DNA of 7,483 nt. It comes from Alphaproteobacteria bacterium UBA2954. Its GTDB lineage: Bacteria; Pseudomonadota; Alphaproteobacteria; Puniceispirillales; Puniceispirillaceae. The position numbers and the translations under genes were made by a program. Location: NCBI GenBank assembly GCA_002348585.1, contig DEBO01000009.1, positions 1 to 7,483 on the forward strand. Direction: 5' to 3'. The notes below the pieces were generated by a model. The model saw only the letters and a list, made by a program, of their open reading frames with translations. It searched no databases and was not told where the DNA came from. Shown one piece after another: positions 3,405-7,483 of the stretch; positions within the stretch are counted from its first letter, which is position 1, and the number at the start of each line of letters is the position of its first letter.

Positions 3405-3492
<88 letters not shown>

Positions 3493-3730: not shown

Positions 3731-3744
3731 CTCTGCACTGCGAT

Positions 3745-3790
3745 TGATTACACATCATGTGACCCACCCCATGCATGGGCCATAGGGGGT
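3745..3790 (+). repeat. Palindromic repeat, copy A
   Basis: Bases 3745-3770 match the reverse complement of 5815-5840 (copy C) in 24 of 26 positions. Bases 3745-3776 match the reverse complement of 5188-5219 (copy B) in 25 of 32. Bases 3774-3788 (CATGGGCCATAGGGG) also recur in direct orientation at 5804-5818. The copy contains a perfect 12-base palindrome, CCCATGCATGGG (3768-3779), and the dyad CACAT-C-ATGTG (3751-3761 region). This fits an outer left arm joined to an inner right arm of one larger palindrome, with part of the left inner arm deleted. It begins about 10 bases beyond the MFS stop codon, so in RNA it could act as a 3' hairpin for that transcript. Confidence 0.75.
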
Positions 3791-3799
3791 GTACAGGTA

Positions 3800-5083
3800 T
3801 TATGTTCCTCTGATTGGTTGATCGCTTATTCTTTTGAAAAATATAATTAGAAAAACTGCTAATCCGCTTAAAATGCCAGCACCGATAAAGGATGGAACAT
3901 AACTCAGCAATGTGTCACGAGCCCACCCTGCAGAGGTGGCTGCAATGGCAGAACCAAACTGGTGAGCGGCAAATATCCATCCAAACAGAATTGGTCCGTT
4001 GACTGTACCAAAATGCTTACTTGCAAGACGGACAGTAGGTGGCACGGTAGCAATAAAATCTAGACCGAAGAAAATAGCCCATAAAATTAAGGTATAAAAT
4101 TCAAATCCACTATATGGCAAATAAAGGAGCGATAAAGCCCTAAGACCATAATACCACATCAGTAAATGATAATTATTATATCTATCAGATAGCCAGCCCG
4201 AACCAATGGTACCAATAAAGTTGAAAATGCCCATAATGGCTAGATATGAAGATGCGGCGACGATGCCGACATTATTGTCTGCGCAAAAGGGAATAAAATG
4301 TTGGCCAACAATACCCGTAGACGATAAACCACAGATCATAAATGTAGAAGCTAATATCCAGAATGCAGGCTCATTCGCGGATTTAAACAAAACGTTTAGA
4401 CTGGTTAAAAATGCGTTTTTTCCATCATGCCTAGGTGGCGTAAACATTTCTTTTTCACCGAGAGGCGTGAGCCTTAAATCATATGGCCAATCTTTTGAAA
4501 ATAATAGAAACAACAGAGCTGAAAAAAAACCACCAATTATTGGAATGACGAGCGCATACCGCCAATCAACTACGGTAGTCAACCATGCCAACAAAGGAAC
4601 AAACAATAACTGACCTGCGGCAAAGGCAGAGGCAAGAATACCAACGACTAATCCGCGCCTGCGCACAAACCAGCGTGTAGCAACCGTTGCAGCTAAACCG
4701 ACGCCTATAATGCCAGCGGCGGCCCCCATTAAACAACCAACTGAAAGTAATAAATGCCATCTTTGGTCTGCTTGGGTTATCAGAAACAAGCCACAGGTAT
4801 TCATTGTTGCTGCCGTTAACACAACATTTCTAACGCCAATTTTAAGCATTAACGCACTAGCAAAGGGAGCAAAACAGGCTAATACGACATACATCAGGCC
4901 AATAGCGTTTGATACATCTGAAATTTGCCAGTCAAACTCGCGTGTTATAGGCAGTATTATTATTTGAGGCACGGTGGATACAGAAGACGAGACCATTGTA
5001 GTTATAAATACAAGAGCCGCCATAACCCAGCCATAATGGACGCCATATCGTGCAAGACACCTGTTGGTAAACTCAGCTAACAT
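3800..5083 (-). CDS. MFS transporter, monocarboxylate/oxalate-formate-like branch
   Basis: A 427-residue polytopic inner-membrane protein, a normal length for the major facilitator superfamily, with about twelve hydrophobic segments in two halves and a cytoplasmic loop at about 197-235. Seen: an N-terminal YGWVMAALVF start (17-26), RWFVRRRGLVVGI at 137-149 (typical of the MCT/OFA-like branch), and GWLSDR at 296-301, the loop motif after the eighth helix. The family moves small organic anions by proton symport or antiport; the substrate here cannot be read from sequence. The ATG at 5083 is supported by GGAG at 5089-5092, 5 bases upstream. A cupin pseudogene lies upstream on the same strand, so the two may once have worked together, for instance in uptake and use of one carboxylate; that is inference. 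Copies of the palindromic repeat lie on both sides. Confidence 0.85.
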   Translation of the reverse strand: MLAEFTNRCLARYGVHYGWVMAALVFITTMVSSSVSTVPQIIILPITREFDWQISDVSNAIGLMYVVLACFAPFASALMLKIGVRNVVLTAATMNTCGLFLITQADQRWHLLLSVGCLMGAAAGIIGVGLAATVATRWFVRRRGLVVGILASAFAAGQLLFVPLLAWLTTVVDWRYALVIPIIGGFFSALLFLLFSKDWPYDLRLTPLGEKEMFTPPRHDGKNAFLTSLNVLFKSANEPAFWILASTFMICGLSSTGIVGQHFIPFCADNNVGIVAASSYLAIMGIFNFIGTIGSGWLSDRYNNYHLLMWYYGLRALSLLYLPYSGFEFYTLILWAIFFGLDFIATVPPTVRLASKHFGTVNGPILFGWIFAAHQFGSAIAATSAGWARDTLLSYVPSFIGAGILSGLAVFLIIFFKRISDQPIRGT

Positions 5084-5109
5084 TTCGTCTCCGTGTAAAG
5101 CATTAATTT

Positions 5110-5137
5110 AGGCTATCAGTCTCCATGCACCGTGCAA
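5110..5137 (-). promoter_or_regulatory. Candidate promoter of the MFS gene with an overlapping palindrome
   Basis: On the minus strand TTGCAC (5137-5132) and TAGCCT (5115-5110) form a plausible -35/-10 pair with a 16-base spacer. The -35 box overlaps a perfect 5-bp dyad, TGCAC-C-GTGCA (5126-5136), where a repressor or activator could bind. The -10 box is weak, so this is tentative. Confidence 0.3.
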
Positions 5138-5187
5138 CAACAGTTTACCTAATTCCACAATCATATTTACATTCAATATGTGTTATT

Positions 5188-5219
5188 ATGCATGGGGCAG
5201 GTTCCATGATGTTTAGACA
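5188..5219 (-). repeat. Palindromic repeat, copy B
   Basis: Plus-strand text begins ATGCATGGGG (5188-5197), followed by CAGGTTCCATGATG, and ends at 5219. It matches the reverse complement of copy A (3745-3776) in 25 of 32 positions and copy C (5815-5840) in 19 of 26. It is the most diverged copy. It lies between the MFS gene and the cupin pseudogene and faces copy A, so the MFS gene is bracketed by inverted copies whose outer ends read TG and CA. Confidence 0.6.
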
Positions 5220-5284
5220 TATTAAATGCAGAGATGATAGATTCTGACGCGATAATTACAACAGGTACTGAAAAAGTGGCTTAT

Positions 5285-5716
5285 TCAGTGTGATTTTTGT
5301 TTCTCAAGTCCTGCTGATAACTCTGACATAGAAATTAGTTTATCCAGGTCATCTCCAGATGAATGTACTAATACTCAAATACAATCGTTTTGACTTTGAT
5401 AAAAAGGCGTATATGGCACGTTTTCCGGAATTAAGATTTGTTCACCTTGTTTCACTAGCGTTTGTTGCTCTTAATTATCCCCATGAAACAAGGTGTACTC
5501 TACCTCTAACAAATATGCTATAGTTTCGATTTCTTCGTGAATATGAGGAACTGAATGAACTCCTGGTGGCATAGGGAGAACATTCATAAACACTATTTGA
5601 GAGCCTGCGGTCTTTCTTTATACACCCGCATTGTAGGTAACGCCCTGTGCTCCCAGATATGTCTCACCAGGTTTTATCAAAATAACATTTTTTCTTTCAA
5701 TTTGATCTCCAAACAA
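5285..5716 (-). pseudogene. Cupin-domain protein, pseudogene with three in-frame stops
   Basis: Reading the minus strand in one unbroken frame from about 5716 to the stop at 5285-5287 gives a near full-length small cupin interrupted by TAA (5618-5620), TAA (5471-5473) and TGA (5375-5377), with no frameshift. Recognisable text: VILIKPGETYLGAQGVTY near the start, MPPGVHSVPHIHEEIE (the metal-binding cupin motif 1, G-x5-HxH-x3-E), and GEQILIPENVPYTPF (cupin motif 2). Motif 2 has lost its usual histidine (Tyr instead) and the following Asn (Tyr), and the Gly closing motif 1 is Val, so decay affects binding residues as well as the frame. Relatives are single-domain cupins of about 130-150 residues with poorly defined roles. 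No ATG is evident at the 5' end; 5716 (TTG) is an approximate limit. An internal ATG would give only a short fragment. Confidence 0.82.
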
Positions 5717-5803
5717 TAATTTCCAAAGCACAATTCAAACATCAGTTTTTTATGCTAGAACAGAAATCTCAAAACCTCCTAATAATATTTTTCTCAGACC
5801 GAA

Positions 5804-5840
5804 CATGGGCCATAGGGGTAGGTCACTTGATGTGTAATCA
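5804..5840 (-). repeat. Palindromic repeat, copy C
   Basis: CATGGGCCATAGGGG (5804-5818) repeats exactly at 3774-3788 in the same orientation, and 5815-5840 is the reverse complement of 3745-3770 with two mismatches. The copy therefore reads as one complete half of the proposed palindrome, from its centre (CATG) to its outer end (TGTAATCA). It lies about 88 bases upstream of the cupin remnant and 74 bases before the EamA start, so a regulatory role is possible. Confidence 0.72.
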
Positions 5841-5914
5841 CTCGCCTAGACTAAACAAAAATGATACTAGCTTGAGCAAATACAAGAAGGACACATTTAA
5901 TAGGATTTTGAAAA

Positions 5915-6929: not shown

Positions 6930-7031
6930 AATCGTAGCAGTTTCCTATCAGTCCAACTTGCGTAATCATTAGTCTCAGAGATTATCCAATCAACGTCAAT
7001 TTACTCTGTTGCGAGGCTTCATCGTGGTCTT

Positions 7032-7061
7032 TTGACAAAACTGATTTTCTGCCGTTATTAT
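7032..7061 (+). promoter_or_regulatory. Strong-looking sigma-70 promoter of the cysteine-rich small gene
   Basis: TTGACA (7032-7037) is a perfect -35 box and TATTAT (7056-7061) a good -10 box, 18 bases apart. Transcription would start near 7068, leaving a leader of about 20 bases before the ATG at 7089. An alternative -10, TTATAA at 7058-7063, has a longer, less favourable spacer. Confidence 0.6.
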
Positions 7062-7088
7062 AAACGCTAGTTGAAAACGGAGTTGATT

Positions 7089-7229
7089 ATGACGGATGCA
7101 GAGGATAGTTGCTGTGTAAACTCTTGTTGCGCAGAAGGTTGCTGCAGCGATGATTGTGCTAATAACTGCGAAGCTTCTTGCTGCAACGATGGATGCTGCA
7201 GTGAAAATTGCAACGATAGTTGTTGCTAA
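7089..7229 (+). CDS. 46-residue cysteine-rich acidic peptide, metallothionein-like in composition
   Basis: The peptide has 15 cysteines in 46 residues: six CC pairs (8-9, 13-14, 18-19, 31-32, 36-37, 45-46) and single Cys at 23, 27 and 41. Neighbouring Cys groups are almost always separated by exactly three residues. It has 10 Asp/Glu and no Lys, Arg, His, aromatic or Pro residue; the rest is mostly Asn, Ser, Ala and Gly. There is no signal peptide or membrane segment, so it is probably cytoplasmic. Such density of thiols suggests binding of soft metals (Zn, Cd, Cu, Ag, Hg) or a thiol buffer; a precursor of a modified peptide is an alternative, but no modifying enzyme is in view. It does not resemble SmtA-type bacterial metallothioneins, which carry His and a zinc-finger fold. 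Coding support: ATG with GGAG at 7079-7082 (6-base spacing), a consensus promoter, and TGC used 11 times against TGT 4 times. I recognise no named family. Confidence 0.8.
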   Translation: MTDAEDSCCVNSCCAEGCCSDDCANNCEASCCNDGCCSENCNDSCC

Positions 7230-7483
7230 GTGGAAAATATAAATAGGATAGTAGATCTTCCATTTTAATGGGGACTTTGGGCAGTATTTTGGTAAATGTT
7301 TGTCCAGAATGAAGCTGGCTCAGAGTTTGCACTTGTCCTGTGGGTTATGAATAAAGTATGAGGGTTTTTCAGATTGTTTGCTTGAACCTCTAAAGGATGT
7401 AAAACCAGCATGCTTGAAAAAGCGAAACTTGGAAAATCGTAAGCTTGCGAAGAATTTTATTGCCCAGTGTAGGGCACGCTTTG
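7230..7483. other. Unassigned right end of the window
   Basis: I see no gene that I can support here. Two overlapping frames stay open to the right edge: plus strand after a TGA at 7348-7350 (contains LKDVKPACLKKRNLENRK and continues past the edge, no ATG, only a TTG at 7378), and minus strand entering at 7481 and stopping with TGA at 7320-7322 (about 53 residues, basic and aromatic). One is presumably the antisense shadow of the other, and either could be part of a gene beyond the window. A small dyad, CCATT-TT-AATGG (7260-7271 region), lies about 30 bases after the cysteine-rich gene but has no T-run. Confidence 0.3.

What the first reader, a model, noticed from the sequence alone, without database searches (positions are those of the whole stretch)
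7089..7229. Unrecognised 46-residue peptide with 33% cysteine and no basic residues
Fifteen of 46 residues are Cys and ten are Asp/Glu, with no Lys, Arg or His. The composition fits a soft-metal binding or thiol-storage peptide but not the bacterial metallothionein families I know (SmtA/BmtA type, mycobacterial MymT). A GGAG site six bases before the ATG and a consensus promoter argue for real expression. It is short enough to be missed by standard gene callers.
Basis: partly seen in the sequence, partly recalled or inferred. Interest (0 to 1): 0.85.

Follow-up and report, generated by a model that had tools for sequence, protein, structure and literature searches.

The report
Ocean bacteria's cysteine-ladder metal-storage peptide
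A tiny protein that is one-third cysteine, missing from the two protein-family libraries searched, is encoded by several groups of sea bacteria and conserved by selection; it would likely hold metal ions such as zinc, as metallothioneins do.

Summary
In detail: window 7089-7229 encodes a 46-residue peptide with 15 Cys, 10 Asp/Glu and no Lys, Arg or His. It is a real gene. Homologues with the same Cys ladder occur in 29 of 136 genomes of the window's order (SAR116), own included, at E <= 1.4e-8, in 17 of 32 genomes of a second alphaproteobacterial order and on 54 named loci, some in beta- and gammaproteobacterial bins. In 44 distinct cores, 12 of 12 Cys columns mix TGT and TGC; median dN/dS is 0.085, or 0.217 at non-Cys codons. 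Promoter, Shine-Dalgarno site and ORF form one conserved block between two genera with unrelated flanks. No Pfam, NCBIfam or PDB family matches. In one genus the gene lies beside a Zur-like zinc regulator and zrg-type zinc genes. I read it as a new metallothionein-like metal store, most likely for zinc. Metal binding and expression are untested; the zinc link rests on one lineage and copper is the main alternative.

The parts
7089..7229 (+). 46-aa Cys-ladder peptide (15 Cys; every Cys-to-Cys step is 1 or 4 residues), stop codon included
   Evidence: translation; spacing; homologues; selection
7079..7082 (+). Shine-Dalgarno site GGAG, 6 bases before the ATG
   Evidence: sequence; GGAG-like sites precede many homologues; GCGGAGTTGATT is shared with L099
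7032..7061 (+). promoter-like TTGACA-18-TATTAT
   Evidence: scan, 1.1 expected by chance; TTGACAAAACT and the region up to GCCGT conserved in L099 of another genus; found nowhere else in 136 genomes at up to 3 mismatches
7009..7243 (+). conserved block: promoter, 5' leader, ORF and about 14 bases after the stop
   Evidence: 77% identity in the 100 bases before the ATG, 86% in the ORF, 53-63% in the other 100-base pieces against a random-pair mean of 57%

Best explanation
The window encodes a 46-residue peptide of a conserved, unannotated family of marine bacteria that is predicted to wrap around soft metal ions, most likely zinc, as a metallothionein-like store. Shown: the family, the fixed Cys ladder ((C)C-x3 units), purifying selection and a self-contained promoter-ORF block. 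Inferred: the peptide stays in the cytoplasm (no hydrophobic signal-like stretch), its reduced thiols form a metal-thiolate cluster, and it buffers or banks zinc (or takes up a pulse of Zn, Cd or Cu) and hands it back to metal-requiring proteins. In one lineage the gene lies beside a Zur-like regulator and zrg-type zinc genes, so coupling to zinc status is plausible there but not shown. The patchy occurrence suggests frequent transfer or loss.
For: Same Cys ladder in 29 of 136 order genomes, 17 of 32 in another order and 54 named loci, 50 of them with 13 or more Cys. 12 of 12 core Cys columns keep the residue while mixing TGT and TGC; third-position entropy 0.981 against 0.256 and 0.232; dN/dS 0.085, and 0.217 without Cys codons. 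Window against its nearest relative L099: dN 0.070, dS 0.428. Spacers drift but their lengths hold, and shortened copies L027, L029 and L030 lack one whole CCxxx unit. Nine of 55 loci have a Zur-like gene just downstream on the same strand, with convergent DUF3299/FtsX/ABC-ATPase genes like the Zur-controlled zinc operon zrg of Vibrio (PMC9817125, passages). Precedent: Zur activates the unrelated metallothionein gene bmtA in marine Synechococcus (PMC9337993, abstract and one section).
Against: No metal binding or expression data. The zur neighbourhood is confined to one genus: 10 of 11 carriers in g28, 0 of 6 carriers in other genera of that order within the flanks seen, and it is not seen in the SAR116 loci. 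The Zur-like proteins score under the curated Zur cut-off (86-100 against 167 bits). No Zur box recognised. Other neighbours point to copper (pseudoazurin) or nothing (guaA, glmS). Only 1 of 8 genomes of the window's genus has a strong match. The structure model is of low confidence (mean pLDDT 56.6).
Confidence: 0.6

Rival explanations
1. The peptide is predicted to be a copper(I) store rather than a zinc store: CC pairs and CxxxC steps would hold a Cu(I)-thiolate cluster that protects the cell or supplies copper proteins such as pseudoazurin.
For: Pseudoazurin-like genes are immediate neighbours in two loci from different families: L099 (166 bp, same strand) and L049 (216 bp, divergent) (E 2e-18 and 4e-19, under the curated cut-off). 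All Cys steps in the window peptide are CC or CxxxC; CxxxC sites bind Cu(I) in Csp storage proteins (recalled).
Against: Two of 55 loci only; the zur/zrg neighbourhood in genus g28 points to zinc. No Csp-type Pfam match.
Confidence: 0.17
2. A thiol or sulfur reserve, or redox buffer: the peptide would store reduced cysteine or quench oxidants without a metal cluster.
For: 33% Cys. Two SAR116 loci lie near what look, by eye, like sulfur-assimilation or Fe-S genes (L050 cysN/cysD-like; L049 mnmA-, iscS- and cysE-like).
Against: A reserve needs Cys content, not Cys register, yet spacing is fixed. No such neighbour recurs outside those two related loci.
Confidence: 0.12
3. A poly-Cys leader peptide: ribosome stalling at Cys codons would tune a downstream operon, as reported for mycobacterial short ORFs (search listing, and recalled).
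For: Short ORF, many Cys codons; the contig ends 254 bases after the stop, so the window's downstream gene is unseen.
Against: Downstream genes differ among the 55 loci and are often convergent. dN/dS below 1 at non-Cys codons. No terminator hairpin on the + strand after the ORF.
Confidence: 0.03
4. A precursor of a modified (RiPP-type) peptide whose cysteines would become thioether or disulfide bridges.
For: Small Cys-rich precursors of that kind exist (recalled).
Against: 2 of 486 neighbouring ORFs within 5 kb hold CxxxCxxC, and by eye neither looks like a radical SAM enzyme (other maturase types were not looked for). No leader/core division or variable core in the alignment.
Confidence: 0.04

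Closest known systems
SmtA/BmtA/Pseudomonas-type bacterial metallothioneins (Pfam PF02069)
   Same: Small, Cys-rich, bacterial; marine Synechococcus BmtA is under Zur (PMC9337993), which parallels the zur neighbourhood of genus g28.
   Different: No PF02069 match in the window peptide or in any of 17 members scanned. 14-15 Cys in a CC/CxxxC ladder and no His in the window peptide, against a Cys9His cluster in the Pseudomonas member (PMC7387436, passages).
MymT, mycobacterial copper metallothionein (named in PMC7387436, passages)
   Same: Small thiol-rich copper-binding peptide, one possible function here.
   Different: Not compared by sequence here; no family model hit.
Csp copper storage proteins (recalled)
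   Same: CxxxC steps as thiolate sites.
   Different: Csp proteins are helical bundles of about 120 residues (recalled); this peptide has 46 residues and no such Pfam hit.
zrg zinc operon of Vibrio (PMC9817125, passages)
   Same: In genus g28 the peptide and the zur-like gene face DUF3299 (zrgE-like), FtsX permease (zrgB-like) and ATPase (zrgC-like) genes.
   Different: zrgA and zrgD were not recognised; the passages seen list no Cys-rich peptide in the Vibrio operon.

Membership tests
Bacterial metallothionein family PF02069 (SmtA/BmtA type) | match to the PF02069 profile | tested here: not met
   No hit for the peptide or for 17 family members; 0 of 136 genomes of the order over the cut-off
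Bacterial metallothionein family PF02069 (SmtA/BmtA type) | Cys plus His ligands (Cys9His cluster in the Pseudomonas member) | tested here: not met
   0 His in the window peptide; Cys steps of 1 and 4 only
Metallothionein in the functional sense | small, very Cys-rich, few or no aromatic residues, conserved Cys spacing | tested here: met
   46 aa, 15 Cys, 0 aromatic; 14 invariant columns in 29 rows, 12 of them Cys
Metallothionein in the functional sense | binds metal ions in thiolate clusters | not testable with these tools
   needs purified peptide; the AlphaFold2 model (no metal) has mean pLDDT 56.6
Zur regulon member | Zur box in the promoter | tested here: inconclusive
   A simple palindrome scan found none near the peptide genes; operators of these lineages are unknown and no binding was tested
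Poly-Cys leader ORF (attenuator) | fixed downstream regulated gene | tested here: not met
   Downstream genes vary among 55 loci and are often on the opposite strand; the window's own downstream gene is off the contig

The most novel reading that the evidence does not exclude
Marine bacteria of alpha-, beta- and gammaproteobacterial groups share an undescribed metallothionein-like family built as a (C)C-x3 ladder, carried as a self-contained promoter-ORF cassette and, in one lineage, coupled to Zur: a zinc bank for heterotrophic bacterioplankton that parallels, without homology, the Zur-BmtA system of marine Synechococcus.
Probability: 0.35. Interest if true: 0.75.

Novelty: new variant of a known kind. 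Interest (0 to 1): 0.62.

Why it matters
Zinc and copper can limit or poison ocean plankton, and how heterotrophic bacterioplankton buffer them is poorly known (general knowledge). A conserved thiolate peptide in SAR116 and other marine bacteria, absent from Pfam and NCBIfam and unnamed in the large protein collection (0 of 72 and 0 of 86 hits carry a name), would be a marker of metal storage in metagenomes. It is directly testable: SAR116 isolates exist (PMC12262181, listing abstract). The CC/CxxxC ladder is also a metal-binding design that matched nothing in the family and structure libraries searched here.

Tried and rejected
Single-sequence search of the 5.8-billion protein set found nothing because no candidate shared three words; alignments were needed. 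PDB profile search: 0 hits. The structure model was too poor for fold searches, so none was run. Viral contigs: 171 pattern stretches, none confirmed with alignment A1. A Zur-box scan found no site I trust at the peptide promoters; aligning the zrg-type (4 loci) and peptide (8 loci) upstream regions gave none either. A search for other genes with the window's promoter element found only the two peptide genes in 136 genomes. Tandem repeat finder: 0 rows. Chance ORF rejected. Leader peptide and RiPP precursor disfavoured. Seven genomes with E 0.02-0.25 are treated as chance.

Rows dropped: for dN/dS, 89 ORF entries (some loci fetched twice) were examined, 71 fitted the core pattern, 44 were distinct; the 18 left out are 7 window-type, 2 cut by a contig end, 1 unrelated ORF of L052 and 8 shortened or decayed copies. 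Of 400 and 600 sampled pairs, 245 and 465 had usable dS. The neighbour Pfam tally was given 124 of the 167 nearest-neighbour ORFs and prints 25 of 120 families. Curated Zur models were run on 4 of the 9 Zur-like proteins.

Full report
What is there. The window is a whole 7483-base contig (G000:C92) of a 1.79-Mb genome rated 78% complete. A contig of the same order matches a named SAR116 record by length and position (G032:C1, 310,046 bases; L006 and L048), so the order is that of SAR116. The ORF at 7089-7229 is as described. Its 15 cysteines form a ladder: every step from one Cys to the next is 1 or 4 residues, that is C or CC separated by exactly three residues throughout.

It is a gene, not chance. 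Fifteen Cys in a 40-aa open stretch compares with at most 8 in 200 shuffles of the window. With the single sequence, 5 of 61 relatives match at E <= 10, three of them convincing, own included. With an alignment, 36 of 136 genomes of the order match at E <= 1, of which 29 (own included) are at E <= 1.4e-8 and 7 are weak. Most carriers are incomplete genomes; among the 43 genomes at least 90% complete and at most 5% contaminated, 4 match at E <= 1 and only G032 strongly. In the class sample 7 of 385 match at E <= 0.01, five of them strongly, own included; in the phylum sample only the own genome, 1 of 398. The order of G143, an alphaproteobacterial order of 0.9-2.0-Mb genomes that no tool named, has 17 of 32. 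A scan of the GTDB species contigs gave 54 loci: 23 titled SAR116, 22 with other alphaproteobacterial or unspecific titles, 6 gamma and 3 beta; some loci share a genome, and bins can be wrong. Fifty of the 54 keep 13 or more Cys. In the large protein set 72 (E <= 10) and 86 (E <= 0.001) predicted proteins match, none with a name or a Pfam domain.

Selection. In 44 distinct 31-codon cores of the commoner subfamily, 12 of 12 invariant Cys columns contain both TGT and TGC, third positions vary about four times as much as first and second (entropy 0.981 against 0.256 and 0.232), and median dN/dS is 0.085. Without the Cys codons it is 0.217, with dN below dS in 97% of usable pairs. The cores were chosen by their Cys pattern, so Cys invariance is partly circular; the codon-position signal and the non-Cys result are not. 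For the window's own subfamily dN and dS are 0.070 and 0.428 against L099, and 0.116 and 1.428 against L031/L100; the other window-type pairs had no usable dS. Copies L027, L029 and L030 lack a whole CCxxx unit. Decayed copies exist: genome G124 holds one (L026/L055) beside an intact window-type copy (L034/L099).

Two subfamilies. The window type (L031/L100, L034/L099, L090, L098, L101, probably P0070) has three residues between the two central single Cys; the commoner type has four there and a Lys after the first CC. 'No basic residues' thus holds for the window peptide, not for the family.

A self-contained cassette. Window 7009-7243 aligns with L099 from another genus: 77% over the 100 bases before the ATG and 86% in the ORF, against 53-63% in the other 100-base pieces and a random-pair mean of 57%. 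Their neighbours differ: EamA in the window; pseudoazurin-like and integrase-like genes at L099. The promoter element occurs nowhere else in 136 genomes at up to 3 mismatches. Among the eight genomes of the window's genus only the window's own has a strong match, although G001, G003 and G007 are 99-100% complete. In G007 the orthologue of the window's EamA gene (75% identity) abuts a convergent gene that looks by eye like an oxidoreductase, with no peptide between, while uppP, its neighbour and tRNA-Leu are conserved on another contig. Phage-integrase domains occur in 3 of 124 nearest-neighbour proteins. I infer transfer and loss; no tree was built.

Neighbours as clues. Nine of 55 loci have a Fur-family gene downstream on the same strand (gap 105-195 bp in eight; 724 bp in L075, where another gene intervenes). 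In the four proteins scanned the best model is Zur (NF008646, E 1.6e-28 to 2.9e-24; 86-100 bits, under the cut-off of 167), far ahead of Fur or PerR models. Convergent to it are DUF3299, FtsX-type permease and ABC ATPase genes. In Vibrio parahaemolyticus zrgE (DUF3299), zrgB and zrgC rise 76- to 148-fold on zinc limitation and the operon is repressed by Zur (PMC9817125, passages). The arrangement covers 10 of 11 carriers of genus g28 and 0 of 6 carriers of other genera in that order within the flanks seen, so it is one lineage's arrangement. Elsewhere within 5 kb the recurrent neighbours are guaA-like (9 loci), glmS-like (8), an ABM-domain gene (4) and pseudoazurin-like (3; immediate in L099 and L049). 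No neighbour is universal.

Mechanism. About fourteen Cys kept in register while the spacers drift is what a metal-thiolate cluster needs and what a mere sulfur reserve does not. With no His and no aromatic residue the window peptide would bind through thiolates alone. The most economical role is a cytosolic metal buffer or store (inference). Zinc is favoured by the zur/zrg neighbourhood and by marine Synechococcus, where zinc-bound Zur activates the metallothionein gene bmtA and lets the cell bank zinc (PMC9337993: abstract and one results section read, passages elsewhere). Copper is the main alternative because of the two pseudoazurin neighbours and the CxxxC steps. Regulation is open: no Zur box was recognised, and the one Fur-family gene found in the window's incomplete genome did not reach the Zur threshold used.

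Known or new. No match in Pfam, NCBIfam or PDB sequences; PF02069 does not occur over its cut-off in 136 genomes of the order. Nine literature searches listed no description of such a peptide; the library holds only openly licensed papers. Two SAR116 papers do not contain the word metallothionein (PMC12262181 and PMC8547437, term searches), nor does the AEGEAN-169 paper according to the listing (PMC10308909), which does mention an iron/zinc chelator (passage). I therefore rate it a new family that is predicted to work like a metallothionein, not a member of the PF02069 family.

Noticed in passing
window 3740-5845: A 31-nt inverted repeat (90% complementary, arms 3740-3770 and 5815-5845) and a 15-nt direct repeat (3774-3788 and 5804-5818) bracket the MFS transporter gene; this looks like a mobile or rearranged cassette.
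   Followed up: partly
window 5471-5593 (-): A short ORF with a VPHIHEEIETIAYLLEVEYTLFHGDN stretch that looks by eye like a cupin remnant, inside the bracketed segment.
   Followed up: no
window 3405-3492: tRNA-Leu(CAG) marks the point after which synteny with complete same-genus genome G007 stops: possibly an island insertion point.
   Followed up: partly
L071 5001-5147 and 6476-6601 (same genome as L116/L122): Two different copies of the Cys peptide lie 1.5 kb apart in one genome.
   Followed up: no
L062, L065, L068-L071, L076, L078, L079, L081, 52-173 bp from the peptide: A conserved 93-114-aa membrane-like protein (MDLLGITALYI...; one member scanned, L070:4558-4899, no Pfam or NCBIfam hit) neighbours the peptide in 10 loci, also where zur is absent.
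   Followed up: partly
L069, L078, L079, L081: between the peptide stop and the zur-like start: An AT-rich inverted repeat of about 13 bp per arm is predicted to fold as a hairpin in the peptide-zur spacer; role unknown.
   Followed up: no
L100, L053, L064, L049: An ABM-domain gene (antibiotic biosynthesis monooxygenase; possibly haem-degrading, recalled) lies 0.2-1.35 kb from the peptide in these four loci.
   Followed up: no
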